A stretch of 35,738 bases of DNA from Methylobacter sp. (GTDB taxonomy: Bacteria > Pseudomonadota > Gammaproteobacteria > Methylococcales > Methylomonadaceae). Location: positions 1 to 35,738 of the forward strand of contig JAURVK010000050.1 of NCBI GenBank assembly GCA_030655535.1, read 5' to 3'. The translations under genes and the position numbers were made by a program. How positions within the stretch are numbered: position 1 is the first letter of the stretch; the number at the start of each line of letters is the position of its first letter. Shown one piece after another: positions 153 through 35,276 of this stretch. A model generated the notes under the pieces. That model made no database searches. It had not been told where the DNA came from and worked only from the letters and a program-made list of their open reading frames with translations.

Positions 153-682
153 TCAAAAGCAACCCTGCTTCAGCATCGTCTCAAACTGTGCAATTGGTAT
201 CGGCTTGCTGAACAGGCAGCCTTGATAGTTAGCGCAGTCATGGTGTCTTCGATGTTCTTTACCAATAAACCTTCAGTCAGCTCCAACTTGAGCAACATCG
301 GATCGATGGCATGATACTGAATGGTCGCCAGCACTTGCGCCATGAAATTGGCTTGGAAAAACTGTTTGGCACTGACATTGACCGACAGCACGAGGCCGCA
401 GGTCAGCGGTGATTGTTGCCAGGCCTTGAGCTGGGCGCACGCTGCCTCCAGCACCCATTGTCCAATGGGCAGAATCAAACCGGTTTCTTCCGCCAGTGGA
501 ATGAATTCCGACGGAGACATCAGACCAGGCTCAGGATGTAGCCAGCGGATCAAGGCCTCCGCACCCGATGCGCGATGAGCACTATCGACCTGAAGTTGGT
601 AATACAGCTCAAATTGCCGGCTCGCAAGAGCTTTACGACGCTCATCTTCCAGTGAAAATCGGGCCGTGATGGCCTCCTGCAT
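153..682 (-). pseudogene. EAL (c-di-GMP phosphodiesterase) domain remnant, cut off from the GGDEF gene and internally deleted
   Basis: This is the former C-terminal half of the PAS-GGDEF gene that ends at 683. It reads on directly from that gene's TAG stop in the same frame, beginning with MQEAITARFSLEDE, the usual GGDEF-to-EAL linker. The start of an EAL domain is present: FELYYQLQVD, AEALIRW with the signature EAL, and LKLELTEGLLVKNIED. At about 235 the frame jumps. The normal frame ends 18 codons after this, but another frame gives NYQGCLFSKPIPIAQFETMLKQGCF and a stop at 153, which is the expected extreme C-terminus of an EAL protein. The central part, including the metal-binding DDFGTGYS region, is missing, so an internal deletion with frameshift has occurred. 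Phosphodiesterase activity is not expected. Independent translation from the ATG at 682 is possible but unlikely to give a folded protein. Confidence 0.85.
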
Positions 683-2155
683 CTACGGGACGAAGAAACG
701 AAGGGCATTGCGGCCTGACGTTTTGGCCTGATACATCGCCATATCAGCATTTTTCAGCAGTTCGCCTATAGTTCGTTCGTGACCGCTGAACAAAGTTGCG
801 CCAATACTGGGCGTACTGCTGTAATCGTGCGTAGCAAGCTTGTAGGGCTGATTGAGGATAGTGCGAATTTTGTTGCCAGCGATTTCAGCCTGTTTTGTCG
901 CTTTAAGGGGCTGTTCGCTCAAATCCAGCAACATCACCACGAATTCATCGCCACCCAGTCGAGCCACGGTATCGCCCTCACGGACACAAGAGCTCAGGCG
1001 TTCGGCTACCTGCTGCAGTAGCAAGTCCCCCATGTCATGACCCAGGGTATCGTTAAGGATTTTGAAATTATCCAGATCGATAAACAGCAGCGCCCCTTTT
1101 CGGCCACTGCGCTGGCTAGCGGCGAGTGCCGGTTTTAATCGATCCTGAAGCAGCCGCCGATTTGGCAGCCGGGTGAGCGGATCATAGAACGCCAGGCGTT
1201 CGATTTCCTCGGCAGCCGCCTTTCTAAGGGTGATATCCGTATGGGTACCCACGTAATGGGTCACGATTCCATTGGAGCCTTTCACCGCGGCAATGGTGAG
1301 ATAGTCAGGATAAATTTCGCCATTTTTGCGCCGATTCCAGATTTCACCTTCCCATGTGCCTGTATTGACGATGTTTTCCCATAGGGCGGCATAAAAGTCT
1401 TGATTCTGTCGGCCTGAATGGAATAGACGAGGATTCTTGCCAATCACTTCCTCCGCTGAGTAACCGGTCATGCCAATAAATGCTCTATTTACCCGAAGGA
1501 TGTTGTTGTTAGCATCGGTGACCATCATGCCTTGCTGGGATTCAAAGACCGTGGCGGCGATGCGGAGCTGATGATCGGCTTGTTTGCGTTCGCTAATGTC
1601 GCGGGTGATGGCGAGGTGCACTACATTACCATTGGCCTCTTTCATGGGTACGGCATGGGTATTCAACCAGCGGCGCCCGCCCTTGAGACCTATTACCTCA
1701 TATTCCATTTGTATGGCGTCGCCGACAAGCACGCGTTTGTGTAATTCGGTGAAGGCATTACGATATTCGGGCGCGATTACCTCTAGTATTGAACAGCCAA
1801 CAACCTGCTCTTGGCTGTCTGCCTCAAGCATCTTCAGTCCGGCAGGGTTCGTCTGCACCAAACGCCCTTCGGCATCAACGATCTCGATACATTCAGGTTC
1901 GTTCTCGATGATGGCGCGCAGGCGGGATTCGCTATCGGCAAGCCGGATCTCAACCTGCTTACGCTCGGTAATATCTTCTTTAAGCGCTTCGCTCTGCTGT
2001 ATCAGCATCAACTGGGTTGCCTTGAGTTCCTGCGCCATCCGGTCAAACATCTGTCGCAGCCTTTCCGCCTGATGCAACCCCTCCTCCAGCAGCTTGTTCT
2101 TCCGTTCAAGAGCCTTAATCTTTCGCTGCAATTCAAGCTGACTGTCAGCCACCAT
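683..2155 (-). CDS. PAS-PAS-GGDEF diguanylate cyclase (truncated GGDEF-EAL protein)
   Basis: Predicted diguanylate cyclase, making c-di-GMP from two GTP in the cytoplasm. The chosen start at 2155 (MVADSQLELQRKIKALERK) overlaps the upstream ODP gene by 11 bp, suggesting translational coupling; a longer frame to 2257 would lie wholly inside that gene. From this start the protein is 490 aa. An N-terminal coiled coil of about 75 residues is followed by two PAS domains, each ending in a typical PAC segment (ITRDISERK, VGTHTDITLRK). A GGDEF domain follows, with an intact GGDEF at about residues 401-405. An RxxD inhibitory I-site (REGD) sits five residues before it, so product inhibition is probable. 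The protein ends in RFFVP and TAG exactly where relatives run on into an EAL domain, and the EAL sequence follows in frame. One reading is a bifunctional enzyme turned into a cyclase only. No haem- or flavin-binding residues were identified in the PAS domains. Confidence 0.85.
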   Translation of the reverse strand: MVADSQLELQRKIKALERKNKLLEEGLHQAERLRQMFDRMAQELKATQLMLIQQSEALKEDITERKQVEIRLADSESRLRAIIENEPECIEIVDAEGRLVQTNPAGLKMLEADSQEQVVGCSILEVIAPEYRNAFTELHKRVLVGDAIQMEYEVIGLKGGRRWLNTHAVPMKEANGNVVHLAITRDISERKQADHQLRIAATVFESQQGMMVTDANNNILRVNRAFIGMTGYSAEEVIGKNPRLFHSGRQNQDFYAALWENIVNTGTWEGEIWNRRKNGEIYPDYLTIAAVKGSNGIVTHYVGTHTDITLRKAAAEEIERLAFYDPLTRLPNRRLLQDRLKPALAASQRSGRKGALLFIDLDNFKILNDTLGHDMGDLLLQQVAERLSSCVREGDTVARLGGDEFVVMLLDLSEQPLKATKQAEIAGNKIRTILNQPYKLATHDYSSTPSIGATLFSGHERTIGELLKNADMAMYQAKTSGRNALRFFVP

Positions 2156-2945
2156 ACTTATTTTCCATGTCCGCATAAATGATGTCGGTGCCGCAGCGTA
2201 AGTTGCGCAGATAATCGAGAGCGGCCGCCACATGCTGCGGTCCAATAATCGAGCCATGCTGCGTCAAGATGGCCTCAATGGCGAAATTTTCGATGCGTCT
2301 GACGAACCCCCTGGCGGCAAGATTGGAAGCCATGTAGTCCAAGTGGAACAGATTCATTTTCTGGATGTGCTCTTCGAATGAATTCACCGTCAGGGTCCAG
2401 TCCAGATCCAGCGCAGCCCAGATGTCTCCTGAAAACAGGTAGCGCGCCTGGGTGTCGTAGGTCACGAAGGCGCCGGGAAAATGAAGGAACGGGGCTTCGA
2501 CGAATTTCAGGCAGGCTCCGGAAGGAAGGGCATAGACTGGGTTTTCAGTCACATCGTAATACGGGTAATCAGAGCGCCCGTAATGCGGCAGCAACACCTG
2601 GGTGCGCGGAGTGGTGAACACCCGCATGGACGGATTGACATCGAGCCAGTCCGTCATGGAGGCGGCCACATCGGGATCCTGATGGCAGAGCACCATGCCG
2701 CTGACTTTTTCAGGCGGCATGATTTGCGCGACCCGCTGCCTCACCTGGGAAAAATACTGCTTGCTGCCGGGATCAACCAGAATTGCCTCATGCTGATCCA
2801 CGATCAGATAAGTATTGCAGCGGAAGGCGGTTTCGTCAGTAATCCCCAGCCAGAATATGCTGTGGCCATTCGCGGCGTAGAGGATGGTCGGAAAATCCAT
2901 GTCCATATTGACGCTGGAAAGATCATTGGCTGTAATTATGTTCAT
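2145..2945 (-). CDS. ODP-family metallo-beta-lactamase-fold di-iron protein
   Basis: A 266 aa stand-alone beta-lactamase-fold domain like that of flavodiiron proteins but without the flavodoxin part. The start at 2945 is preceded by a good AGGAG. Metal ligands are visible: H88-Q-D90-P-D92, H155 in FLHFPGAF, D174 in LFSGDIW and H230 in TQHGSIIGP. The aspartate in the HxDxD motif and the FPGAF loop fit the ODP/flavodiiron subgroup rather than hydrolases. Members of this family bind iron and oxygen and have been proposed as oxygen or redox sensors feeding signalling systems. Its downstream partner here, overlapping by 11 bp, is a PAS-GGDEF cyclase, so control of c-di-GMP by oxygen is a reasonable inference. 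A histidine-kinase tail lies 25 bp upstream on the same strand, suggesting a once larger signalling operon. Confidence 0.85.
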   Translation of the reverse strand: MNIITANDLSSVNMDMDFPTILYAANGHSIFWLGITDETAFRCNTYLIVDQHEAILVDPGSKQYFSQVRQRVAQIMPPEKVSGMVLCHQDPDVAASMTDWLDVNPSMRVFTTPRTQVLLPHYGRSDYPYYDVTENPVYALPSGACLKFVEAPFLHFPGAFVTYDTQARYLFSGDIWAALDLDWTLTVNSFEEHIQKMNLFHLDYMASNLAARGFVRRIENFAIEAILTQHGSIIGPQHVAAALDYLRNLRCGTDIIYADMENKYGG

Positions 2946-13730: not shown

Positions 13731-13898
13731 TTTGTAATAATATCAAGACATGTTGGTTGTGTAGATGTTGATGGCTTAACGCATTGCAAAATCATATTAC
13801 ATCAATGAAGGTAAATCTACTTATGTATAAAGATGGACATGTAATGTATTATTGATGCTTTTTGAATGCATGTGGCTAGCTGTTTTATAGTTAGTTGA

Positions 13899-14108
13899 AA
13901 AAGAGTAACGACTGGGACTAGTGCTCAGCGATTCCGTATGAATGTAACAATGCGCCGCCAGCTGCGGTTGCAGAACTCTGACCACAGTTCCCCTACCGGC
14001 CATTCTATAGCCACCTGGAGACACTTCAATTTCTTGGGCGAATATGATTTTTCAGACGAGAAACTACAGGATTCTGTGGAAATTCACCCCCCCAAAAACA
14101 CAGCCTAA
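13899..14108 (+). pseudogene. Probable transposase C-terminal remnant
   Basis: An open frame without a credible start runs from 13899 to the TAA at 14106-14108 and includes SPTGHSIATWRHFNFLGEYDF, then SDEKLQDSVEIHPPKNTA. The W-HxNxxGEYDFS pattern just before a stop resembles the ends of Tn3-family transposases. Family assignment is from memory and not firm. It sits immediately upstream of the defence island, where a mobile-element scar would be expected. The rest of 13731-14244 shows nothing else recognisable. Confidence 0.4.
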
Positions 14109-14244
14109 TCTAAGGTAAAGTTTGGAAAGAATAAAATTAGCTTAAAATAGGGCTGCAAAAGGGTTTGCAATAAATCCTACGGTGCGTTAAGTACCTTTAT
14201 GCAGAATAACCCAAATTTCTATGGAAGAAATTTTGAGCCTTTTA

Positions 14245-14273
14245 TTGATTAACACCCATATATAAAGTATAAG
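14245..14273 (+). promoter_or_regulatory. Sigma-70 promoter candidate for the RHH/ParE operon
   Basis: TTGATT (14245-14250) and TATAAG (14268-14273) are separated by exactly 17 bp of AT-rich sequence, about 39 bp before the antitoxin ATG. It is the best promoter match upstream of the island. Such promoters are normally repressed by the antitoxin-toxin complex. Confidence 0.5.
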
Positions 14274-14311
14274 CTACGATTACAAGTGAACCACAATAAA
14301 CCGGAGTAGCA

Positions 14312-14572
14312 ATGATGGCAACTGAAGCATTTACTATTAGAGCTGAAACAAACATCGTGCATAAGCTAGACGACCTAGCTGGATCATTAGATAGATCCCG
14401 TAATTATTTAGTCAATCAAGCCATCAAGGAATATCTGGAAACTCACGCTTGGCAGGTGGAGAAAATAACCCAAGGCATAGCAGCCGCTGACCGTGACGAA
14501 TTGATTGCGCATGATGATGTTATGCGTGAAATGGAAGACCTGATTGAGCGCAAAGCGAAAGTTCACGCGTGA
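14312..14572 (+). CDS. Ribbon-helix-helix (CopG/ParD-like) antitoxin
   Basis: An 86 aa antitoxin. The N-terminal MATEAFTIRAETNIVHKLDDLAGSLDRSRNYLVNQAIKEYLE is a typical ribbon-helix-helix DNA-binding fold: a short strand, then helix-turn-helix with SRNYLVNQAI. The acidic C-terminal helix (MREMEDLIERKAKV) is the expected toxin-wrapping part. GGAG lies seven bases before the first ATG at 14312; the adjacent ATG at 14315 is an alternative. Its stop overlaps the toxin start by four bases. It would neutralise the toxin and repress its own promoter. Confidence 0.88.
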   Translation: MMATEAFTIRAETNIVHKLDDLAGSLDRSRNYLVNQAIKEYLETHAWQVEKITQGIAAADRDELIAHDDVMREMEDLIERKAKVHA

Positions 14573-14853
14573 AGATTGTTTGGACCGAACCCTCCCGGCA
14601 GGATTTACGCGACATCTTCGAATTCATTGCCGAAGATAACGCCAAAGCAGCTCGTTCGTTGTTGGCTGAGATCAAGGAGCGCGTCTGTGTGTTGGTAAAT
14701 GAGCCGCAATTAGGCCGTGTCGGTAGGGTCGAGGGAACACGCGAGCTAGTTTTGACTGGAACCCACTACATCCTTCCTTACCGGGTGAAAGATCAACAAA
14801 TACAGATTTTGTCTGTTTTTCATGCGTCACGACAATGGCCTAAAAGTTTTTAA
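14569..14853 (+). CDS. ParE/RelE-superfamily toxin
   Basis: A 94 aa toxin starting at a GTG within the GTGA overlap with the antitoxin stop. The fold markers are KIVWTEPSRQDLRDIFEFIAEDN at the start, EPQLGRVGRVEGTRELVL in the middle and HYILPYRVKDQQIQILSVFHASRQWP at the end, the usual RelE/ParE pattern. The middle segment with GRxGRxxGTRELV fits the RelE/ParE plasmid-stabilisation group. Whether it cuts ribosome-bound mRNA (RelE) or inhibits gyrase (ParE) cannot be told; the RHH antitoxin partner favours ParE. It appears complete. Confidence 0.88.
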   Translation: MKIVWTEPSRQDLRDIFEFIAEDNAKAARSLLAEIKERVCVLVNEPQLGRVGRVEGTRELVLTGTHYILPYRVKDQQIQILSVFHASRQWPKSF

Positions 14854-14879
14854 TCTGTTAGGGATTAGCTAATAAAAGC

Positions 14880-17800
14880 ATGGAAATAATCGACAACATC
14901 AATCACCTATTAGGTGAGAATCTTAAACGGACCATCAAGTCGAATGCCAAGCTTAAAATTGCCGCATCCAGTTTTTCGATATACGCATTTGCTGCATTAA
15001 AGCGTGAGCTTGAACGAGTTGAATCTCTAGAGTTCATTTTCACTTCGCCGACTTTCGTGCCCAATGAGGTCACGGACAAAATCAAAAAAGAACGCCGCGA
15101 GTTTCATATTCCTAAAGCCGAACGGGAACGTAACTTTTACGGCAGTGATTTCGAAATCCAGCTCAAGAATAAACTGACGCAACGGGCTATCGCCAAAGAA
15201 TGCGCAGACTGGATGCGCCCAAAGCCATTTTCCGCTCTAATCGTGGTAAAGCGTCAATGCAGCAATTTGCCTGTGTACAAGGCAAGGAGTCCGATGCGGT
15301 TTACCTGCCGTTGCATGGATTTACTGCGGTCGGTCTTGGCTACCAGCAGGGTGACGCGGTATCGAATCTGGTCCATAAAATGGACGAGCCGACCATCACT
15401 CCAACTTACTTGAATCTCTTCGATCAAATCTGGAATGATACCGAGAAGTTGGAAGACGTGACCGCCCGCCTTTGTGATCATATCGCCTCGGTTTATCAGG
15501 AAAACTCGCCAGAGCGTATCTATTTTCTGATGCTCTACAACATATTTAATGAGTTCCTTGAAGACCTGAACGAAGACGTGCTGCCCAATGATCGCACCGG
15601 TTATCAGGACAGCCTGATTTGGCAAAAGCTCTTTAATTTCCAGAGAGACGCGGCTACCGGCATCATCAACAAATTGGAAACCTATAGCGGCTGTATTCTT
15701 GCTGACAGTGTGGGTTTGGGGAAAACTTTTACCGCTCTTGCGGTTGTTAAATATTACGAGCTGCGCAATCGATCTGTTTTAGTGCTTTGCCCCAAAAAAC
15801 TGGCGGACAACTGGTTGAACTATAACCGCAATCTAAAAACCAATATTTTTGCCAAAGACCGCTTCAATTACGACGTGCTTTGCCACACCGACCTGCAAAG
15901 AACCAGCGGCGAATCTTTTGGCACACCGCTGAATCGCATCAACTGGGGTAATTACGATTTGGTTGTCATCGACGAGTCGCATAACTTCCGCAACAACGAC
16001 GCCTTCAAAGACCGGGAAACGCGCTATCAAAAGTTGATGAATGCCGTTATCAAGGAAGGCGTTAAAACCAAAGTGCTGATGCTCTCGGCCACGCCAGTCA
16101 ACAACCGCTTTAATGACCTGCGCAATCAGCTTGCGCTTGCCTACGAAGGAGATTCAGAAAACCTGAGCAAAAAGCTAAAAACTAATAAAAACATCGATGA
16201 GATCTTCCGCAAAGCCCAAGCGAGCTTCAATTCATGGTCTAACTTGCCGCCTGAAGAGCGCACGGCCAAAGCTATTTTAGGCGCCTTGGACTTTGATTTC
16301 TTCGAGCTGCTGGATAGCGTCACCATTGCCAGGTCGCGCAAACATATCGAAACCTTTTACGACACCCAAGAAATCGGCAAATTTCCCGAGCGCCGTAAAC
16401 CGCTTTCATTTCATTGTCCGCTGACAAGCAGAACGGACATACTGGGGTTTAATGAAATTTTTGCACAACTGTCTTTGTTGCAATTGGCCGTCTATGCGCC
16501 TATCAGCTACATCCTGCCCAGTCGGCTGGCTAAATATGAAGAGCAATATGACACTCAGGTAAGCGGAGGCAAAGGCAAACTTAAACAGGCGGATCGCGGA
16601 AAAAGCCTACAGGCGTTAATGACAATCAACCTTCTCAATCGTCTTGAAAGTTCCATCCAGGCTTTCCGGCCGACCCTGCAAAAACTCAAAGACAAACATC
16701 TCGGCACGCTCTTAAAGATCAGTGATTATAAGAAAAACGGCAAGGATATTCGCTTTGCCGACCTTGCTGCCGCCTACGAAAATGCCGAACCCGACGAAGA
16801 CGATTTCCCCGAGCCGGACGATGTCAAGATCGGCGGCAAGATACAAATTAGCTTATCCGACATGGATTTGCCCTCATGGGAACACGCCCTTCAGGCCGAT
16901 CTTTTTGTCATTGACGCTCTTTTAGCGGAAATGACAAAAATCAAACCCGCTGAAGATGCCAAACTTCAGCATCTAAAAGCCCAAATCGACAACAAGCTGG
17001 CTGCGCCCATCAATCCGGGCAACAAGAAGATTCTGATTTTCACTGCGTTTGCCGATACCGCCAATTATCTGTATGAGCATATTGCCGACAGTCTGCTGCA
17101 AAGTCATCAGTTGCACACCGGCAAAGTTACCGGCAGTGATAGCCCAAAATCCACGCTCAAACAACGTTATGATTTCCAATCGCTGCTGACGCTGTTTTCC
17201 CCACGGTCAAAAGAAAAAGCCGCTATTTTTCCGAATGAGCCGGGTGAGATTGATATTCTTATCGGCACGGATTGCATCTCCGAAGGCCAAAACCTCCAGG
17301 ATTGCGACTACCTGATCAATTACGATATTCACTGGAATCCCGTGCGCATTATTCAGCGTTTCGGGCGTATTGACCGTATTGGCTCGCAGAATGCCAGCAT
17401 TCAACTGGTCAATTATTGGCCGGATATTACCCTCGACGAATACATCAACCTCAAAGAGCGTGTCGAAAACCGTATGGTGATTGCCGATGTCACCGCGACC
17501 GGAGATGACAACGTGCTAAGCGCTCAATCAAATGATGTGTCTTATCGTAGAGAGCAACTAAGGCGCTTGCAGGAAGAAGTTATTGAAATGGAAGATCTCA
17601 AAACCGGCGTCTCCATTACTGACCTTGGCCTCAATGATTTTCGTATGGATTTGCTCAACTATGTAAAAGCCAATGGCGACATGGATGGCGTACCCAGTGG
17701 CATGCATGCCGTGGTGCCCGCCGCTCCAGAGCGGGGCTTATTGCCGGGTGTTATTTTCACCTTGCGTAATCGTAACCAAGGCGTCAACGTCAACCAACAA

Positions 17801-18160
17801 AACCGCCTGCATCCGTATTATCTGGTTTATATCAGTCAGAATGGCGATGTCATTACCAACCATACTGAAGTCAAACGTTTGCTCGACTTAGTGCGCAGTG
17901 CTTGCAAAGGCCAAAATCAGCCTATCCCTGATGTCTGCCAGCTTTTTAATCAGAACACCGCAGACGGTCGCAACATGCTGGTCTATTCCGATTTACTCGG
18001 CAAGGCCATTCGTTCGATGATCGATGTGCAAGAAGATAAAGACCTCGACAGCCTGTTTAGCGGCGGTCGTACCACGGCGCTGGTTAACACCATTGCCGGA
18101 CTGGATGACTTTGAGCTTATCGCTTTTCTTGTAATTCAGTCCGATAGGCAGGATAAATGA
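14880..18160 (+). pseudogene. SNF2-type helicase with PLD-like N-terminus, broken by one frameshift
   Basis: A gene for a protein of about 1090 aa split into two frames. The first begins MEIIDNINHLLGENLKRTIK and runs through KNKLTQRAIAKECADWM. Near 15219 the sense moves to the second frame (KAIFRSNRGKASMQQFAC), as if one base were lost after ATGCGC. The second frame carries a full helicase core: Walker A DSVGLGKT (15704-15727), DESH (from 15971), LMLSATPVNN, then a C-terminal helicase half with TDCISEGQNLQDCDYLINYD and QRFGRIDRIGS. The N-terminal 300 residues resemble the PLD-like part of such helicases, but no intact HKD motif was seen. It heads the defence operon and overlaps the DUF4391 gene by ATGA. 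The second frame could be started internally and still give a helicase without its N-terminal part. Confidence 0.85.
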
Positions 18161-18808
18161 GCCACGCGCTGTTTCACTTTCCAAAACAAGCCGCTTTTGA
18201 GCGTGTATTACCAAAAAGTAAAATCTATGAGCATTCTAGCCGTGCGTGAGCAATTTATTGCTCAGGTAGACAAAATTATTTGGCAATACAAATTAGCGCC
18301 TGAAACGGTGAATCTACCTGCTCGTCCCGATGTGCCGGAAATTCAGGTTTTTACCATTGCGCTAAAAACACCGGAACTTAGCGATGAAGTTTTACGCTGT
18401 ATCGACCAGGTCATTCCATTTCCGATTTTTTACCAACTTACTTTTGAAGGACGTATTAAAACAAAAGCTGCCTACAAACGACCCAACGAGGCTGACGCCA
18501 GCAAATGGGTTATTGATGGCTATTTTGAAACCGACTGGCAAGCTGACGATACCGAACGCACAGAACTCCCAGTTGCCCTTGACATGGCCGGATTGTATGA
18601 ACACCTGTTAAGACGGCTGTTACCGCTGCCGCCCCGCACAGGTGAAACTCTTAAAGCCCAAATCGAACGCCTTGGACAAATACGCAGCAAACAACACGAA
18701 TACCGTAAAATGGAAGCTCGACTTCAGAAAGAACTGCAATTTAACCGCAAAGTGGAACTCAATAGCCAATTGCGCCAACTGAAGCATGAATTGGCACAGC
18801 TTATATAA
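18157..18808 (+). pseudogene. DUF4391 protein, frameshifted near its start
   Basis: The ATG at 18157 overlaps the helicase stop (ATGA) and gives MSHALFHFPKQAAFERVLPK, then SKIYEHS, the expected DUF4391 beginning. That frame stops at 18247-18249. Sense continues one frame over from about 18239 (AVREQFIAQVDKIIWQYKL, then APETVNLPARP), to LKHELAQLI at 18808. The shift falls between 18235 and 18239 and equals one extra base or two lost bases. The rest is intact: PFPIFYQLTFEGRIKTKAAY, WVIDGYFETDW, LYEHLLRRLLPLPPR and a charged C-terminal coiled coil. DUF4391 proteins are, to my knowledge, regularly encoded beside such helicases and type III-like Mod/Res genes; their activity is not established. 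A late start at about 18197 would give a nearly complete protein lacking the first 25 or so native residues. Confidence 0.8.
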
Positions 18809-18831
18809 GCCAAGCTACACAAGGAATCCAG

Positions 18832-19944
18832 ATGAATCAATTACCCACAATACCGCCACCACTGCCGATCACCCAGCTCGATTGGCAAAAGCTCATGCCT
18901 ATGATCAGCCGTGCCAATGCCGCTTTAGGTCGTTATGACGGGCTATTACGCTCCTTGCCGAATGCAGCGGTTTTGTTATCGCCCATCACCACCAACGAAG
19001 CGGTGTTATCGTCACGGATAGAAGGCACCCAAGCCACGCTGGAAGAAGTCATCCAACAAGATGCGGGTATTGCAACGCCGCCGGAACGCTATGCAGACCT
19101 TGAAGAAGTGCGTAACTATCGCGATGCCTTATTTTTAGCCGAACAAGCCCTTGAGCACCGCCGCTTATCGCTATCGCTCATTAAAGAAATTCATCAGCGG
19201 CTTATGCAAGGCGTGCGTGGGGAAAATAAAACACCGGGGCAATTCAGGATTGATCAAAACTGGATAGGTCGCCCTGGTTGCACGATGGAAAATGCGCGTT
19301 TTATACCGCCCAACCCTATGGTTTTGCCGCAAGCGTTAGAGGCATGGGAGCGATATTTCTCAGATACCGAAGAAGACCCGGTATTACAGATTGCCGTGGT
19401 TCATGCCCAATTTGAAATACTGCACCCGTTTAAGGATGGCAACGGACGTATCGGGCGCATGTTGATCCCACTATTGCTATTTCAGCGCGATCTGCTATCG
19501 CGTCCGATGTTTTATTTATCCGAATACCTGGAAGCGCATCGTGAAAGGTATTACGATCAACTGCTGTTAATTACAGAAACCGGTGATTGGCAAGGCTGGA
19601 TAGAGTTTTTTACCCAAGCCGTGATTACCCAGGCAGACGCCAACCTTGAAAAAGCACAGCAGATTCTGGCGCTTTATAATCAACTAAAGCCGCAATTCAT
19701 TGATGCAACGCATTCGCAATATGCTGTACCGGCATTGGATGCCTTTTTTAGAAAGCCCATTATTAATTCGACCGATTTTGCAAGTTTATCGGGTATCGAA
19801 ACCCGTCCGACATCCAATGACATATTAAAAAAATTAGTCGAGCGCGACCTGATCCAACTATTCCGCGCCGGTTCGGGCAGTAGTCCCGCCATTTACATGT
19901 TAAGTCAATTACTTAACATCGCCGAAGGCCGTCAAGTGTTCTAG
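18832..19944 (+). CDS. Fic-domain protein (class II, N-terminal autoinhibitory motif)
   Basis: A 370 aa Fic protein, predicted to transfer AMP (or another nucleotide moiety) from a nucleotide to protein hydroxyls. The catalytic motif HPFKDGNGRIGR starts at H198 and is complete. The inhibitory helix motif (S/T)xxxE(G/N) is present as S60-SRI-E64-G65, so activity is probably self-restrained. The Fic_N region (residues 1-80) and a C-terminal winged-helix-like segment (FRKPIINSTDFASLSGIETRPTSNDILKKL) follow the common three-domain plan. It lies between DUF4391 and mod, in the same direction, with its own AAGGAAT ribosome-binding site. It is one of the few undamaged genes in the island. Class II Fic proteins often have no separate antitoxin, consistent with the neighbours here. 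Confidence 0.92.
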   Translation: MNQLPTIPPPLPITQLDWQKLMPMISRANAALGRYDGLLRSLPNAAVLLSPITTNEAVLSSRIEGTQATLEEVIQQDAGIATPPERYADLEEVRNYRDALFLAEQALEHRRLSLSLIKEIHQRLMQGVRGENKTPGQFRIDQNWIGRPGCTMENARFIPPNPMVLPQALEAWERYFSDTEEDPVLQIAVVHAQFEILHPFKDGNGRIGRMLIPLLLFQRDLLSRPMFYLSEYLEAHRERYYDQLLLITETGDWQGWIEFFTQAVITQADANLEKAQQILALYNQLKPQFIDATHSQYAVPALDAFFRKPIINSTDFASLSGIETRPTSNDILKKLVERDLIQLFRAGSGSSPAIYMLSQLLNIAEGRQVF

Positions 19945-19957
19945 TTCACTTTGTGTA

Positions 19958-19997
19958 AGGTCTACTTAACACAAAGTAGTTTGTGTAAAGTAGACCT
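19958..19997. repeat. 40 bp near-perfect hairpin between fic and mod
   Basis: Positions 19958-19975 pair with 19980-19997 over 18 bp with one mismatch and a 4 nt loop (GTAG). The word TTTGTGTAA occurs twice in direct orientation (from 19950 and from 19980), giving half-site spacing like an operator. No T-tract follows, so termination is unlikely; autoregulation by a DNA-binding protein of the island (RhuM-like or the Fic winged helix) is possible. Confidence 0.7.
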
Positions 19998-20038
19998 AAT
20001 ACTAAGAGCAATGAGTAAAAAGTGGAAAAATAACTGTT

Positions 20039-21938
20039 ATGGAACACCCTGAACAAGATATGAAACTCAAACTGCACAGCCTCGATTTTACGCAAGCCAA
20101 TATCGCCAAGCTGGCCGAACTGTTCCCCAACTGCGTGACTGAGACCCGCGAGGCGGATGGAACCTTGAAAAAAGCCATCGACTTCGACCAACTGCGTCAA
20201 GAGCTGTCTACGTCCGTTGTTGACGGGCCGAAAGAGCGTTATCAGCTTAATTGGCCGGGCAAGCGCGAAGCCTTATTAACCGCCAACGCACCGATTGCGA
20301 AAACCTTGCGTCCATGTCGTGAAGAAAGCGTGGATTTTGACGCTACGCAAAACCTGTTTATCGAAGGCGATAACCTGGATGCGCTCAAATTGTTGCAGGA
20401 AACTTATCTGGGTAAGGTCAAGATGATTTATATCGACTCGCCGTACAACACCGGTAATGATTTTATATATGAGGATGATTTTGCCGAAGATAGCGAAATC
20501 TATTTGCAGCGATCTAATCAAAAAGACGAAGCGGGAAATCGTTTAGTCGCAAACAATGAATCGAATGGGCGCTTTCATTCAGACTGGTTAAGTATGATTT
20601 ACTCACGCCTGAAACTGGCACGGATACTGTTGCGAGATGATGGAGTTATTTTTATTTCAATTGATGATGGTGAAGTTTCGAATCTTAGAAAGCTTTGTGA
20701 TGAGATTTTTGGGGAGGATAATTTTGCTGCACAGATTATCTGGAAAAAACGAAGCACTCCACCAAATGATAAAGTGATTGCCGCTCAACATGACTACATT
20801 CTCGTGTACACAAAAAGTTCTATCAACGGATTGAACTTGCGGAAAAGATCAGATGTACAAGTTGCCCGATACAAGAATCCAGACAGTCATTCTAAGGGTC
20901 CTTGGACCGCAGGCGATTTAATGGCTAACGTTAAAGGAGGTCGTTATGCGTCATCCCTCTATTTTCCAATAGTTAACCCTCGAACAGGTCAAGAGCATTA
21001 CCCATCTTCTAATGGAAATTGGAGATTCAATGATGCTCGAATATAAAGAATTGATAGCTAATGATGAAATATATTTTGGTGAAAATGACGAAGGTCGACC
21101 TAAGCTAAAACGATTTTTATCTCAAGTTAAGGAAGGCATTACATGGACTACTCTATGGGATTTTGTACCGCTTAATACTGCGGCTTCTAGCGAGATGGCA
21201 CAAATATTTGGCAACCTTACTACATTTGAAAATCCAAAACCTGTTGGTTTAATAAGTCATATTTTAGAAGTGGGTGGTTCAAATGATGCGGTTATCCTTG
21301 ACTTCTTCTCAGGCTCCGCCACCACTGCCCACGCCGTCATGCAGCTTAATGCTGAAGACGGTGGTAAGCGCAAATTCATCATGGTGCAACTGCCTGAAAG
21401 CTGCGGCGAAAAAAGTGAAGCCTACAAAGCTGGCTACAAAACTATCGCCGAGATCGGCAAAGAACGCATTCGCCGCGCAGGTAAAAAGATCAAAGCAGAA
21501 AACGCCGATAAAGAAGGCATAGACCAATTGGACATTGGTTTCCGGGTACTGAAAATCGACAGCTCCAACATGAAGGATGTTTACTACACACCTGATGCTG
21601 TGCAACAACGCAACCTTTTTGACCAGATCGACAATATCCGCGAAGACCGCACCCCTGAAGATTTGCTATTTCATGTGCTGCTGGATTGGGGCGTCGATTT
21701 AACGCTGCCTATCACTCAGGAAACTATCGCAGGTAAAATCGTGCTGTTTGTTGATGACAACGCGCTGGCCGCTTGTTTCGATGCCGACATTAACGAGGCT
21801 TTTGTTAAAGAACTAGCTGCCCGTCATCCGCTGCGGGTGGTATTCCGCGATGCCGGTTTTGTCAGCGATAGCGTGAAGATCAACATCGAGCAAATCTTCA
21901 AGCTCATTTCGCCCAGCACTGAAATTAAAACACTTTAG
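20039..21938 (+). pseudogene. Type III-like DNA methyltransferase (Mod), broken by one frameshift
   Basis: Adenine/cytosine-N4 methylase of the beta class, seen in type III restriction-modification. The first frame (20039-21046) carries the catalytic motif IV as YIDSPYNTGNDF (D133-S-P-Y136), preceded by NLFIEGDNLDALKLLQETYLG. At about 21035 the sense shifts one frame: NGNWRFND continues as LEYKELIANDEIYFGENDEG. The second frame (to 21938) carries motif I, the SAM-binding DFFSGSATTAHAV, then the Mod C-terminal region (GFRVLKIDSSNMKDVYY). The order IV before I fits the beta class. About 630 codons in total is a normal Mod length. Neither fragment alone holds both motifs, so methylation is expected to be lost unless frameshifting or fragment complementation occurs. 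The start at 20039 lacks a strong ribosome-binding site; an ATG at 20060 is possible. Confidence 0.88.
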
Positions 21939-22001
21939 AGCAATGATAGAAAAGCATGCTGTAAGTTGTACCGCGTACTTTATCCCTTGTGAGTGGATAT
22001 T

Positions 22002-23027
22002 ATGAACAAAGACCTGACAAATTCTTCTATTGATCGACAAAACATTCTGAATAATCCCTATGCCCTTGCTGAAATTGAGAAGGCTGCTGGGATTCAGGGT
22101 ATTCCCTTCGAGGGCAAGACTGTTCTGCTTAAGGAGCAGGTGGCTGCTTTTTTTGAGGTCACGATTAGAACCATTGAAAATTACCTGGAACAACATGCTT
22201 CTGAACTGGCAAAAAATGGTTATGTAGTATTGAAGGGTAAGCGACTGAAATCATTAAAGGAAGCGATCCAAGCTATGGATGTTCCCGAAACTGATTTCGG
22301 GAACATCGCGAAGACCCCTCAATTGGGGGTTTTTGACTTCCGTGCTTTTCTTAACCTAGCTATGCTGGTTTCAGAAAGTGATCGGGCAAAGTTATTGCGT
22401 CAGGCGATTCTGGATATTGTCATCGACACTATTAACCAGCGTACCGGCGGCGGCACTAAGTATATTAACCAGCGTGATGAAGACTTTCTGCACTCTGCTT
22501 TCAGCGAAGAAAACTATCGTAAAGAGTTTACCGATGCCTTGAAAGATTGCGTTGAAATGGGCAATTTTAAATATGCCGTGTACACCAACAAAATTTACGT
22601 CAGCATTTTCCGTGAGGATGCAAAGGAGTACCGGAAAATACTAAAACTTGAAGACAAGGATCATGTTCGTCCCACTCTTTATTCGGAAGTGTTGGATCTG
22701 ATTGCCTCTTACGAATGCGGATTCGCTGATCTTCTCCAGCAGGAAGCTAAAACAAAAGGCCGCAAGCTCAAACCATCGGAAGTCGATATTTTATTTAAAA
22801 GCTTTGAGTCTCAGAGCCACTGGAAACCGCTCATTGAAAAAGCAAGAATGAAAATGGCCAGCCGCGATCTTGCGTTTAGAGATGCTTTGCATCACCAGTT
22901 AAAAGAATATGTTACCCCGCTACAACGGGATGAGTTTGAACGGTTTATTGGTGAACGAAGCCAAGAATTGGCTGAACGTTTGGTAGAGGCCAAGGATGTC
23001 ATGAAGCGTCTTAAGGATCGTGACTAA
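22002..23027 (+). CDS. RhuM-like DNA-binding protein, probable partner of the Doc toxin
   Basis: A 341 aa protein. The ATG at 22002 is chosen over an in-frame GTG at 21993 because GAGTGG lies upstream at suitable distance. Near residue 40 is a helix-turn-helix-like segment (LLKEQVAAFFEVTIRTIENYLEQH) like that of RhuM proteins. The middle has FDFRAFLNLAMLVSESDRAKLLRQAILD and GGGTKYINQRDEDFL. The C-terminus is helical and charged. It overlaps the doc start by one base (TAATG), the classic antitoxin-toxin layout, so it is probably the antitoxin and repressor for that toxin. Much larger than Phd, it belongs to a separate antitoxin type. The RhuM label is by resemblance only. No damage is visible. 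Confidence 0.65.
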   Translation: MNKDLTNSSIDRQNILNNPYALAEIEKAAGIQGIPFEGKTVLLKEQVAAFFEVTIRTIENYLEQHASELAKNGYVVLKGKRLKSLKEAIQAMDVPETDFGNIAKTPQLGVFDFRAFLNLAMLVSESDRAKLLRQAILDIVIDTINQRTGGGTKYINQRDEDFLHSAFSEENYRKEFTDALKDCVEMGNFKYAVYTNKIYVSIFREDAKEYRKILKLEDKDHVRPTLYSEVLDLIASYECGFADLLQQEAKTKGRKLKPSEVDILFKSFESQSHWKPLIEKARMKMASRDLAFRDALHHQLKEYVTPLQRDEFERFIGERSQELAERLVEAKDVMKRLKDRD

Positions 23028-23476
23028 TGGCAGTCATTTATCTGACCATTGAACAGGCAGTTGATACTCACCAGAAAACGGTAGAAGTAAGTGGCGGCGG
23101 CACGCTTGAGCATCTCGATTTAGGTAAACTGGAAAGCGCGTTGGAACATATCCAGAACGATGTTTACTACCCGACTTTTGAAGACAAACTTACCCACCTG
23201 TTTTTTAGCGCCAATAAATTCCACTGTTTTGCCGACGGCAATAAACGCATAGCTATTACGTTATGCGCGGAAATGCTGCTTTTTAATGGTTATCTGTATT
23301 GTGTCAGTCGGTTTTTACATGAGATGGAAAACATCAGTTATCACGTCGCTGCTGGAAGCATTGATAAGGATTTATTGCACGAGATCATAACGGCCTTTCT
23401 TGCCGAAGAAATGGGTGATGAGGGATTAAAACTGAAAATTGTTAACGCCATGTCTGGGAACGATAATGAAGCTTAA
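23027..23476 (+). CDS. doc: Doc-type (death-on-curing, Fic fold) toxin
   Basis: A 149 aa toxin of the Fic/Doc superfamily. The active-site motif H66-CFAD-GNK-R74 (HCFADGNKRIA) matches the Doc pattern HxFx(D/N)GNK. Doc of phage P1 phosphorylates EF-Tu and halts translation; the lysine in GNK, as here, marks that kinase-like subgroup. The usual Doc start YLTIEQAVDTHQKTVEVSGGG is present. It begins at the overlapping ATG after the RhuM-like gene and overlaps the res start by 11 bp, so the toxin is placed inside a restriction operon. The gene is complete. Confidence 0.88.
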   Translation: MAVIYLTIEQAVDTHQKTVEVSGGGTLEHLDLGKLESALEHIQNDVYYPTFEDKLTHLFFSANKFHCFADGNKRIAITLCAEMLLFNGYLYCVSRFLHEMENISYHVAAGSIDKDLLHEIITAFLAEEMGDEGLKLKIVNAMSGNDNEA

Positions 23477-24673
23477 GTTTAAGAAACAGGCCTACCAAAC
23501 CAACGCCGTTGAAGCCGTGGCGAATTGCTTTGCCGGACAGCCCCCAATTAATGGAGTTAAATACCGCGTCGATCCTGGTCGCTCGAAAACAGGCGAACAG
23601 CAAACCAGCTTGGATGATTCTGGCTTTAGAAATAATGATGTTGTTCTTACATCAGCGCAATTATTGGAAAATATTCATGCCGTTCAACGCCACCAAAATC
23701 TACCGCTTTCTACGGCTCAGGTTAACGATAAAAAAACCGGTTGCCCTATCAATCTTGATATTGAGGTGGAGACCGCACCGGCAAGACTTATTGCTATATC
23801 AAAACGGTGTTTGAGCTGAACAAACGTTATGGCTGGAGCAAGTTTATCGTGGTCGTGCCCAGTATTGCGATACGCGAAGGCGTGTATAAATCGCTGGAAA
23901 TCACCGCCGAACACTTTTTGGAAGACTACGGTAAAAAGATACGGTTTTTTATTTATAACTCCAAGCAATTGCATAACTTGGAAAGCTTTTCCTCCGATGC
24001 GGGGATCAATGTGATGGTGATCAACGTGCAGGCTTTCAATGCCACCGGTAAGGATGCCCGCCGTATCAATGAAGAGCTGGATGAGTTTCAATCCCGCCGC
24101 CCGATTGATGTCATCAAGAGCAATCGCCCCATTTTGATGCTCGATGAACCCCAAAAGATGGAAGGGGCGAAAACGCTTGAATCCTTTAAGGGCTTCAATC
24201 CCCTGATGATTTTGCGTTACTCAGCCACGCACAAAACCGAACACAATAAAATTCATCGCCTTGACGCGCTGGACGCTTACAATCAGAAGTTGGTGAAAGA
24301 AATATCCGCGCGCGGTATTTCAGTTAAAGGGCTTTCGGGCACCAACGCCTATTTGTATCTGGGCGGGGTTGAAATATCAACCAGTAAACCGCCTGTTGTC
24401 GGTGTGGAGCTGGAAATAAAACAAAAATCCGGCATTAAACGGGTACTGCGCAAATTAGGCAAAGGCGACAATTTGTTCGTGTTATCCGGTGGACTGGATC
24501 AGTATAAAGACTTTGTGGTATCAGATATTAATGCCCATACCAATACCTTGAGCTTTACCAATGGGGTAGAACTTAGGGTCGGGGGTTCGCCAGCAGTCGC
24601 CTTGATTTATTTGGCGGAAGTCATTCGTCAAAGGCGGTCGGGGTTTTCTGTGCCAAAGCTTCCTTTAAGTTAA
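23466..24673 (+). pseudogene. Type III-like restriction helicase subunit (Res), frameshifted in Walker A and C-terminally truncated
   Basis: The ATG at 23466 gives MKLKFKKQAYQTNAVEAVAN, a type III Res beginning. At about 23775 one base is missing: the sequence reads GAGACCGCACCGGCAAGACT where GAG ACC GGC ACC GGC AAG ACT (ETGTGKT) is expected. Sense then continues one frame over as [20 protein letters not shown]. Later motifs are intact: [11 protein letters not shown] (DExx box) and LRYSATH (motif III). Similarity ends after [13 protein letters not shown] near 24585, and about 30 unrelated residues run to the TAA. Normal Res proteins are roughly 900-1000 aa with the second helicase half and a PD-(D/E)XK nuclease at the C-terminus; both are absent. 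Restriction by this subunit is not possible. Confidence 0.85.
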
Positions 24674-24683
24674 GGGGGTCTGA

Positions 24684-25000
24684 ATAATTACGATGGATGT
24701 TAACATGCCGGTGTTGAAGGTAAGCGTTACTTGTGTTCTGAAGTTGCCAATAATCTTGCTTTTCAGGGTTTTCCTGGAAGTAACGAATCGCCGTTCTCAA
24801 TACTTTCTCCGCGAGAAGCGGAAGTGGTGACGTTAATTCTTCAGGGACAAGCGATCAAAGAAATGTCGGCAATACTGAAATTGAGTGACAAGACGGTAAA
24901 TACTTATCGCTATCGTCTTTACGGTAAGTTGCATGTAAAAAATGATGTCGAATTGATTCGCCTGGCGATTAAGTTCGGCTATATTCCGATGGTGTTTTGA
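24684..25000 (+). pseudogene. GacA/UvrY-like response regulator lacking most of its receiver
   Basis: The C-terminal LuxR-type DNA-binding domain is complete: SILSPREAEVVTLILQGQAI, then SDKTVNTYRYRLYGKLHVKNDVELIRLAIKFGY, which closely fits GacA/UvrY. Upstream, a different frame from 24684 reads IITMDVNMP, the segment around the phosphoacceptor aspartate, and a missing base at about 24711 would restore MDVNMPGVEG. The next residues are already GKRYLCSEVANN, which normally lie about 80 residues later. So the front of the receiver is gone, an internal piece is deleted and the join is out of frame. A TTG at 24731 could start a receiverless 89 aa protein. The break coincides with the end of the defence island. 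Confidence 0.72.
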
Positions 25001-34606: not shown

Positions 34607-34685
34607 CCAAACTACTTGTTGCTAAGCAAAGTATCCGATGCTACAGTCGCATTATATTTATGTATAACTAACAAGAGGCATGGTC

Positions 34686-34943
34686 ATGTACACAACACGT
34701 CTTCGCAAAGTTGGCGGCTCAATTATGATGGCCGTTCCACCTGCATTTCTCGATATGTTGCATATAGGGGCCGGTACTACGGTCGGCGTTGAGATTGATC
34801 ATGGCAGGTTGGTGGTCGAACCCCAATTGCGGCCGCGCTACACCCTTGACGAGTTGTTGGCGCAGTGTAACACTTCCGCACCGATGAGCGATGAAGAGCA
34901 CGCCTGGTTAGATTCCGGCCCGGTCGGTAACGAGCTACTGTAA
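34686..34943 (+). CDS. mazE: MazE-like (AbrB/SpoVT fold) antitoxin
   Basis: An 85 aa antitoxin with the swapped-hairpin AbrB-type DNA-binding start (MYTTRLRKVGGSIMMAVPPAFLDMLHIGAGTTVGVEIDHGRLVVEP) and an acidic C-terminal tail that would thread through the toxin. Two in-frame ATGs lie at 34680 and 34686. The AGAGG is only one base from the first and seven from the second, so the second is preferred. A TATAAC at 34663-34668 may be a -10 box; no -35 is clear. The stop directly abuts the toxin ATG. Confidence 0.85.
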   Translation: MYTTRLRKVGGSIMMAVPPAFLDMLHIGAGTTVGVEIDHGRLVVEPQLRPRYTLDELLAQCNTSAPMSDEEHAWLDSGPVGNELL

Positions 34944-35276
34944 ATGGAGCGGGGCGACATATATCTGGTTTCACTCGATCCGACTTCAGGACGTGAGCAG
35001 CAAGGAACCCGCCCGGTGTTGGTTGTTTCGCCCATTGCTTTTAATCGCGCAACCCATACGCCGGTAGTTCTGCCTATTACTGGGGGCGGAAATCATGCCC
35101 GTACCAGTGGCTTTGCGGTGACGTTGATGGGGGCAGGCACGAATACGACGGGCGTTATCCGGTGCGATCAGCCGCGAGCTATCGACTTAAGCGCCCGCCA
35201 CGCCAAGAAGCTGGAAAGTGTGCCGGAATCTATTATGGATGAAGTGCTGGCACGGTTGGCCGTAATCTTCAAGTAG
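34944..35276 (+). CDS. mazF: MazF/PemK-family endoribonuclease toxin
   Basis: A 110 aa toxin predicted to cut mRNA (and possibly rRNA/tRNA) at short sequence motifs. Family signature: MERGDIYLVSLDPTSGREQQGTRPVLVVSP at the N-terminus, with the catalytic Arg in GTRPVLV. VVLPITGG, then TTGVIRCDQPRAIDLSARHAKKLESVP, holds the second conserved segment including the Thr/Ser site. The length is normal and the frame intact. It is translated directly after mazE without a gap. Confidence 0.93.
   Translation: MERGDIYLVSLDPTSGREQQGTRPVLVVSPIAFNRATHTPVVLPITGGGNHARTSGFAVTLMGAGTNTTGVIRCDQPRAIDLSARHAKKLESVPESIMDEVLARLAVIFK

What the first reader, a model, noticed from the sequence alone, without database searches (positions are those of the whole stretch)
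14312..24673. Composite defence operon: SNF2 helicase, DUF4391, Fic, Mod, RhuM-like/Doc, Res
Two Fic-fold modification enzymes (a class II Fic and a Doc with its own DNA-binding partner) are embedded, same strand and partly overlapping, within what reads as a type III-like restriction-modification operon with an extra helicase and DUF4391. Overlaps (helicase/DUF4391 ATGA, RhuM-like/doc TAATG, doc/res 11 bp) argue for one coordinated system rather than random neighbours. A plausible design is restriction as first line, with Fic or Doc as an abortive backup released when restriction is inhibited.
Basis: partly seen in the sequence, partly recalled or inferred. Interest (0 to 1): 0.8.

Follow-up and report, generated by a model that had tools for sequence, protein, structure and literature searches.

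The report
Swappable toxin cassettes inside restriction operon
A bacterial DNA-cutting defence operon carries two toxin-like gene cassettes in slots where its relatives carry other genes or none, and in this genome the cutting machinery looks broken while the cassettes look intact.

Summary
The genes are real and the stated overlaps are exact. The host operon is an SNF2-type helicase, DUF4391, type III Mod and Res. SoFic sits between DUF4391 and Mod; a DNA-binding-protein/Doc pair matching PADLOC's PDC-M59A/B sits between Mod and Res. All four host genes are broken here and Res lacks its endonuclease; SoFic, M59A, M59B and an upstream RHH/ParE pair are open.

The four-gene core is in 70 of 80 helicase loci. 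40 of these 70 hold extra genes between core genes, often of defence or toxin type. SoFic occurs in 2 of 70, M59A in 2 of 70, both together in none. A closely related operon in Methylobacter KS41 has a PIN-domain gene and a ParE-like gene in the two slots instead. They are not random neighbours: M59AB lies between the specificity/methylase gene and the nuclease gene of a restriction operon in 6 of 7 readable genomes (window included), type I and type III. This is a new member of the published 'embedded defence' pattern.

The parts
13894..24715 (.). defence island as a whole, inserted between motA and a response-regulator gene
   Evidence: blastn: window homology to same-genus L150 stops at 13893 and resumes at 24716 while L150 has only 381 bp between; L149 and L151 agree within about 150 bp
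14312..14572 (+). ribbon-helix-helix antitoxin-like gene
   Evidence: PF01402; 93% identical in L036
14569..14853 (+). ParE-like toxin gene
   Evidence: PF05016 5e-18; 72% identical in L036
14880..18160 (+). SNF2-type helicase, core gene 1, broken (ORFs 14880-15413 and 15200-18160)
   Evidence: PADLOC C3a139 HKD+Snf2; frame switch seen with intact relatives by tblastn
18157..18808 (+). DUF4391 gene, core gene 2, broken near its 5' end
   Evidence: PF14335 4e-50; two frames in tblastn with L029/L039
18832..19944 (+). SoFic, class II Fic, open frame; cargo of slot DUF4391|Mod
   Evidence: PDLC03963 366 bits; motifs; SoFic chains among PDB relatives
20039..21938 (+). type III Mod, core gene 3, broken (ORFs 20039-21046 and 21012-21938)
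   Evidence: PDLC03634 MTase_III positions 3-326 and 327-620 of 621 in two frames
22002..23027 (+). PDC-M59A, DNA-binding-like partner of Doc, open frame; cargo of slot Mod|Res
   Evidence: PDLC04717 348 bits; alignment A5 and model pLDDT 89
23027..23476 (+). PDC-M59B, Doc-type Fic protein, open frame
   Evidence: PF02661, PDLC04718, HCFADGNKR
23466..24582 (+). type III Res remnant, core gene 4: frame switch at the Walker A region and no endonuclease domain
   Evidence: PDLC03647 positions 1-366 of 989; homology ends at 24582; RE_endonuc at ~916-1027 in L039/L062
24716..25000 (+). 3' remnant of the response-regulator gene cut by the island
   Evidence: 89-aa ORF; open frames of 222-223 aa beside motA in L149, L150, L151

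Best explanation
The locus is a mobile type III restriction-modification operon with two extra core genes (SNF2-type helicase, DUF4391) that acts as a carrier. Between its core genes are recurrent slots into which self-contained defence or toxin cassettes are exchanged by recombination, probably through the conserved flanking genes. Here slot DUF4391|Mod holds SoFic and slot Mod|Res holds the M59A/Doc pair. Each cassette is expected to act on its own and to be co-expressed with the operon: SoFic is an autoinhibited AMPylase that stops the cell when infection relieves inhibition, and Doc is a host-protein-modifying toxin held by its DNA-binding partner M59A. Shown: conserved core, slots, cassette differences between close relatives, intact motifs, broken core genes, insertion site. 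Inferred: the recombination route, co-transcription, toxin activity, phage trigger, independence of action, and that the cassettes still work after the restriction part decayed.
For: 70 of 80 helicase loci carry all four core genes. 40 of 70 have at least one extra ORF of 100 aa or more: Mod|Res 35, DUF4391|Mod 15, hel|DUF4391 9. 51 of 74 such ORFs match one of 20 labelled families, all 51 on the operon's strand. Representatives over all fetched operons are AlbA_2/HATPase, RhuM (PDC-S05), Bro-N (PDC-S13), AAA_21+DUF4276 (HEC-01), OLD, GmrSD, YhcG (PDC-S02), Abi_2, SIR2+HerA and others. Close operons differ by whole cassettes: window/L036, L060/L064, L061/L066, L065/L077, with 82-91% nucleotide identity on either side of the Mod|Res cassette. 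Mod|Res content changes at least 30 times on a 71-helicase tree; shuffled labels give mean 34.9. M59AB occurs in type III Mod|Res and type I HsdS|HsdR positions. Core genes broken, cassettes open; empty site in 3 of 3 relatives examined.
Against: No expression, toxicity or phage data. Content is slightly more clustered on the tree than random (4 of 500 shuffles at or below 30), so some inheritance exists. 30 of 70 operons have no extra ORF of this size. The largest family (AlbA_2/HATPase, 14 ORFs) has only weak PADLOC matches, 9 labelled ORFs belong to families with no known defence role (23S rRNA IVP-like, DUF2130, DUF2779), and 23 of 74 are unlabelled. The 100-aa limit misses small toxin-antitoxin genes. 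Core genes show strong purifying selection against L036 (dN/dS 0.02-0.10), so their breakage is recent or partly an artefact of a draft assembly (179 contigs, 87.8% complete). Five lesions sparing the shorter cassette genes is not significant by itself (hand estimate about 0.16). A flanking GGDEF/EAL gene may also be interrupted. The 80 loci are the best-scoring of 585 in a capped list, not a random sample.
Confidence: 0.68

Rival explanations
1. One integrated layered system: restriction is the first line and Fic or Doc is a guarded abortive backup released when restriction is inhibited, as described for PrrC and its type I RM system.
For: M59AB is inside an RM operon in 6 of 7 readable genomes. 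L162 and L163 carry a zeta-like gene in slot DUF4391|Mod plus M59AB after Mod, and L035 carries M59AB plus a Fic between HsdS and HsdR. M59B overlaps the nuclease gene in the window and L162 and, by my reading of the junction letters, in L181 and L161. PrrC precedent read in PMC3710099.
Against: 66 of 70 complete relatives lack both, and none of the 70 has both. Whole cassettes differ between operons whose helicase genes are 85-92% identical. M59AB also occurs in satellite phages and prophages with no RM gene found nearby. In the window the restriction part is broken.
Confidence: 0.12
2. The cassettes are mainly addiction modules that keep the RM island from being lost; defence is secondary.
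For: RHH/ParE leads the operon in the window and L036, and L036 has a PIN-domain gene and a ParE-like gene, each behind a small ORF, in the two slots. Core broken but toxin modules open. Small toxin-antitoxin genes are undercounted by my 100-aa limit.
Against: Among the 51 labelled slot ORFs the named families are mostly not classical toxin-antitoxin pairs. SoFic has published anti-phage activity (PMC12249575, passages and section 5 read).
Confidence: 0.17
3. Unrelated genes dropped by chance into a decaying island.
For: Core genes broken, flanking response regulator truncated, another toxin-antitoxin gene pair nearby.
Against: The same slots are filled in 40 of 70 other operons, and all 51 labelled occupants lie on the operon's strand. 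M59AB recurs next to restriction nuclease genes of two RM types.
Confidence: 0.03

Closest known systems
Embedded defence genes / 'guilt-by-embedding' candidates (Payne et al. 2024 preprint; PADLOC-DB v2 PDC and HEC models)
   Same: Defence genes lying between core genes of another defence system; both M59 genes match PDC models, and SoFic and several slot genes have PADLOC models.
   Different: The preprint was not read; only passages of citing papers were. Whether this helicase-DUF4391-Mod-Res host is listed there is unknown.
DarTG2 between hsdS and hsdR with RptR (PMC12255303); TgvAB in a type I RM operon (PMC11411939)
   Same: Toxin or defence pair inside an RM operon, DarTG2 just before hsdR; passages read, and section 11 of PMC11411939.
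   Different: Type I hosts; different cargo; those operons are active and tested.
RM operons with DOC, RhuM or PrrC (Anantharaman et al. 2013, PMC3710099)
   Same: Similar gene company, and a multi-level defence scheme was proposed there; passages read.
   Different: The spellings 'type III R-M' and 'type-III' do not occur in it; here cassettes are seen to differ between close operons.
SoFic anti-phage Fic with AS1 antitoxin (PMC12249575, passages and section 5 read)
   Same: Class II Fic, full-length model match; SoFic chains among its PDB relatives.
   Different: No ORF of AS1's 47 aa on the + strand before Mod; the one gap ORF has 33 aa.
SNF2/HKD helicase systems (DISARM DrmD, Hma, PLD-helicase)
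   Same: Partial helicase similarity.
   Different: Best specific model is C3a139; DrmD NCBIfam score 145.8 against a cut-off of 610.

Membership tests
Type III restriction-modification | Mod with amino-methyltransferase motifs | tested here: met
   PF01555 in both pieces, DSPY and FFSGSAT motifs, but the gene is split into two frames
Type III restriction-modification | Res with helicase and endonuclease domain | tested here: not met
   Window Res covers profile 1-366 of 989; L039 and L062 have RE_endonuc at ~916-1027. It is a remnant of such an enzyme
SoFic | Full-length match, Fic motif HPFx(D/E)GNGR-type and N-terminal inhibitory motif | tested here: met
   Profile 7-358 of 361; HPFKDGNGR, SSRIEG
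SoFic | AS1 antitoxin downstream (described for E. coli H397) | tested here: inconclusive
   Only a 33-aa + strand ORF in the gap; no AS1 sequence was compared
PDC-M59 (PADLOC) | M59A and M59B side by side | tested here: met
   348 bits (profile 2-334 of 338) and 129 bits (5-147 of 159), adjacent genes
RhuM (PF13310) | Virulence_RhuM domain | tested here: not met
   No Pfam hit for M59A; hhalign 10.6%, 28 columns
Phd/Doc toxin-antitoxin | Doc active-site motif | tested here: met
   HCFADGNKR; TIGR01550 37.4 bits, just below its cut-off of 38.65
Phd/Doc toxin-antitoxin | Small Phd antitoxin partner | tested here: not met
   The partner gene codes for a 341-aa protein without Pfam hit
Embedded defence cassette | Gene between core genes of a multi-gene defence system, with other cargo or none at that place in relatives | tested here: met
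DISARM | DrmD over its curated cut-off | tested here: not met
   145.8 against 610 bits
RM-guarded toxin (PrrC-like) | Toxin held inactive by the RM complex and released when it is inhibited | not testable with these tools
   Needs protein and phage experiments

The most novel reading that the evidence does not exclude
M59A is a DNA-end or lesion sensor and M59AB is a restriction-triggered abortive switch: the neighbouring nuclease subunit cuts phage DNA, M59A binds the ends and lets go of Doc, which arrests the cell if cutting is heavy. This would explain why the pair sits before the nuclease gene in both type I and type III operons. The only structural hint is a weak Foldseek match of the M59A model to DdrC, a Deinococcus DNA-damage protein (three DdrC chains rank 1-3; best E 0.004, probability 1.00, TM 0.28 on the query and 0.42 on the target). 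DdrC binds DNA without sequence specificity and circularises linear DNA (PMC5436757, abstract read). No sequence match supports it.
Probability: 0.06. Interest if true: 0.75.

Novelty: new member of a known kind. Interest (0 to 1): 0.4.

Why it matters
It shows, at nucleotide resolution, operons whose helicase and Res genes are 85-92% identical but whose cassettes between core genes are entirely different. It also shows one candidate pair (M59AB) using the place before the nuclease gene in two unrelated restriction types. This predicts where unknown defence genes will be found, and sets up a clean test of whether embedding means cooperation or only shared transport. The principle itself is published.

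Tried and rejected
RhuM identity of M59A: rejected. DISARM membership of the helicase: rejected; Hma only a weaker partial match. HKD nuclease motif: an HxK search in the first 260 residues of three intact relatives found nothing, so the 'HKD' in the PADLOC name is not confirmed here. DUF4391 function: a confident model of a relative (pLDDT 94.5) has no PDB match with E below 0.04. Source of the 133 bp between Res and the response regulator: no second copy in the genome. Inverted repeat after SoFic: single copy, not pursued. Promoter scan: fewer sites than in shuffles, uninformative. Further Fic genes: a motif search over 134 candidate slot ORFs not already labelled as core, SoFic or M59 found none. 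An HsdM fragment beside M59A in L033 that I saw by eye was not confirmed by Pfam, so L033 is counted as not embedded. In one search the helicase row was out of frame and is void; one search replaces it.

Absence in print: DUF4391 is named in 1 paper of the library; a search for four PDC names found 5 papers, none with PDC-M59; a search for type III RM with SNF2 helicase and phospholipase D gave 17 papers, 8 listed, of which I read passages of one. The Payne preprint is not held and was not read.
Full report
WHAT IS THERE. The window is contig C156 of a 2.76 Mb draft genome in 179 contigs, 87.8% complete. On the + strand from 14312 come RHH and ParE (toxin-antitoxin), an SNF2-type helicase, DUF4391, SoFic, type III Mod, PDC-M59A, PDC-M59B (Doc-type) and a Res remnant. 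SoFic has HPFKDGNGR and an N-terminal SSRIEG motif, and Doc has HCFADGNKR (motif patterns recalled, the three Fic classes as in PMC12249575).

STATE OF THE GENES. tblastn with intact relatives shows the homology of helicase, DUF4391, Mod and Res each switching frame once in the window. For Mod the switch falls in a variable region and is placed only between 20973 and 21043 by its ORF limits. Homology of Res ends at 24582, about one third of the protein; the endonuclease domain of two relatives lies at about residues 916-1027. SoFic, M59A, M59B, RHH and ParE are open and match their models over nearly full length. The core genes still differ from L036 mainly by silent changes (dN/dS 0.02 to 0.10 in six stretches), so the damage is recent or partly an assembly error. 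Seven neighbouring genes align with a same-genus genome (L149) over all or nearly all of their length, which speaks against a uniform error rate, but a GGDEF/EAL pair at 170-2257 may also be interrupted. With about 7 kb of core and 3.1 kb of cassette and toxin-antitoxin genes, five lesions all in the core is not significant by itself (hand estimate about 0.16).

WHERE IT SITS. In 3 of 3 relatives examined (two of the same genus, one of the same family; picked from the best of 61 genomes searched) motB-motA is followed directly by a full-length response-regulator gene and a methylene-tetrahydromethanopterin dehydrogenase gene. In the window the island 13894-24715 replaces 381 bp of L150 there, including the 5' part of the regulator. 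None of the loci L021-L115, L036 included, matches the window by blastn outside the island, so the operon sits elsewhere in them.

THE CORE OPERON. DUF4391 was found in 15 of 369 genomes of the class, window included, 13 over the cut-off. I fetched 12 regions besides the window. Of these 12, 10 hold helicase, DUF4391 and Mod; 8 of them hold Res too, 7 in the window's order and L028 in another; L029 and L030 end near contig ends; L027 lacks the helicase at a contig start; L032 has only DUF4391 fragments. None of the 12 has SoFic or M59 in the stretch fetched. 70 of the 80 have helicase, DUF4391, Mod and Res in this order; the other 10 lack one or more of them in the stretch held, several because the contig ends. 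'Complete' means that all four classes were detected; frames were not checked for all 70.

THE SLOTS. 40 of 70 have at least one extra ORF of 100 aa or more between core genes: 35 in Mod|Res, 15 in DUF4391|Mod, 9 in hel|DUF4391, 1 between two Mod genes; 30 have none; 15 have two or more slots filled. Of 74 extra ORFs, 51 matched one of 20 labelled families. Of the 51, 14 are AlbA_2/HATPase (only weak PADLOC matches), 5 RhuM, 5 Bro-N, and 9 belong to families with no known defence role (IVP-like, DUF2130, DUF2779); the other 18 include AAA_21 with DUF4276, GmrSD, Abi_2, YhcG, OLD, SIR2 with HerA, UvrD, SoFic and M59. Operons outside the 70 gave AbiH-like, KilA-N and PDC-M61B with HEC-07 genes. 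Small toxin-antitoxin genes are undercounted by the 100-aa limit. SoFic is in 2 of 70 (L051, L091) and M59A in 2 of 70 (L062, and L066 as a partial gene), all in Mod|Res. No locus of the 70 has both, and none has SoFic in DUF4391|Mod as the window does.

CASSETTE DIFFERENCES BETWEEN CLOSE RELATIVES. Methylobacter KS41 (L036) shares the RHH/ParE pair, helicase, DUF4391, Mod ends and Res with the window at 76 to 93% nucleotide identity (helicase 85%, Res 86%). Its Mod has lost its middle and its Res is also in two frames. In DUF4391|Mod it has a PIN-domain gene, and in Mod|Res a ParE-like gene (just over its cut-off), each behind a small ORF without Pfam hit, instead of SoFic and M59AB; homology breaks at window 18816/20063 and 21937/23460. 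Other close pairs also differ by cassettes: L060/L064 (AlbA_2 or RhuM), L061/L066 (DUF2779 and AlbA_2, or M59A), L065/L077 (none or RhuM). On a tree of 71 helicases the Mod|Res content needs at least 30 changes; shuffled labels give mean 34.9, s.d. 1.4, and 4 of 500 are at or below 30. So turnover is high, with a little inheritance.

M59AB. M59A was found in 4 of 369 genomes of the class and 11 of 398 of the phylum; two genomes are in both lists. Five of the phylum matches are fragments or weak and were dropped. Eight distinct genomes have a near full-length match. One contig (G578) is too short to read. Of the other seven, window included, six have the pair inside a restriction operon: after Mod and before Res in the window, L162 and L163 (in L163 a RhuM gene follows M59B), and between HsdS and HsdR in L034, L035 and L161. 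HsdR (L034, L035) and HsdS (L034) were confirmed by Pfam; HsdM and the L035 HsdS are named by eye, and L161 by similarity to these. In L033 the pair lies beside a GmrSD gene (Pfam), an IS21-like element and integrases (by eye). L162 and L163 have open core genes plus a zeta-like gene in DUF4391|Mod (Pfam match tested in L162 only). L035 has M59AB, a Fic and a RhuM piece together. Elsewhere: 1 plasmid record, after Mod and Res beside phage genes; 4 phage records, all Streptococcus satellite phages, one looked at; a partial DNA match in 1 of 5426 E. coli genomes, near phage genes; 17 viral contig loci, 6 of them with an RM gene directly beside the pair by my reference set (L173 and L174 are one record, L168 is the Ilyobacter prophage again, L176 and L183 are weak or partial), the rest without one directly beside.

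HOW IT PROBABLY WORKS. SoFic proteins are reported to give abortive infection by AMPylation (PMC12249575, passages and section 5 read). P1 Doc inactivates EF-Tu (recalled). M59A is predicted to have HTH-like elements near the N terminus and a helical body and is the likely partner that holds Doc (inferred from the pairing and the TAATG overlap). The M59A model weakly resembles DdrC. I expect each cassette to act alone. The recurring place before the nuclease gene leaves room for a functional link, kept as the novel case. DUF4391 remains without an assigned role.

KNOWN OR NEW. PADLOC's PDC models come from the guilt-by-embedding study (PMC12988326 and PMC10855318, passages read). RM operons with DOC and RhuM and a multi-level scheme were described in 2013 (PMC3710099, passages read). 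DarTG2 and TgvAB are tested examples in type I operons (PMC12255303, passages; PMC11411939, passages and section 11). This locus is a further, decayed example in a type III operon.

Noticed in passing
window 34680-34943 and 34944-35276: A second small toxin-antitoxin pair: the downstream gene matches PemK/MazF; the upstream 87-aa ORF is its likely antitoxin (not tested).
   Followed up: no
window 170-2257, minus strand: A PAS-GGDEF gene and a partial EAL gene lie in the same frame separated by a stop, perhaps one interrupted GGDEF-EAL gene.
   Followed up: partly
window 19946-19997: An inverted repeat (GTCTACTT...AAGTAGAC) directly after SoFic; its left part has a single copy in the genome; possible operator.
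   Followed up: partly
L060/L064, L061/L066, L065/L077 (Mod genes): The middle of Mod, presumably its target-recognition part, also diverges between operons whose helicase genes are 85-92% identical.
   Followed up: no
L148 4995-6452 and L177-L179: M59AB in a Streptococcus satellite phage and similar elements, near the integrase; M59A is annotated there as 'CiaB protein'.
   Followed up: partly
L036 8695-8931: An integrase-like C-terminal fragment (by eye) just upstream of the Methylobacter KS41 operon, a hint that it came with an integrative element.
   Followed up: no
L093, L094, L100: Two Mod genes in a row in three actinobacterial operons.
   Followed up: no
L161 10366-11636: A DUF1828 gene and a DUF6978-like gene (just below its cut-off) also sit between HsdS and M59A in this type I operon.
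   Followed up: no
L051 138-1622 and L082 8288-9388: Distant SoFic-like ORFs (24-25% identical) upstream of the helicase, outside the slots.
   Followed up: no
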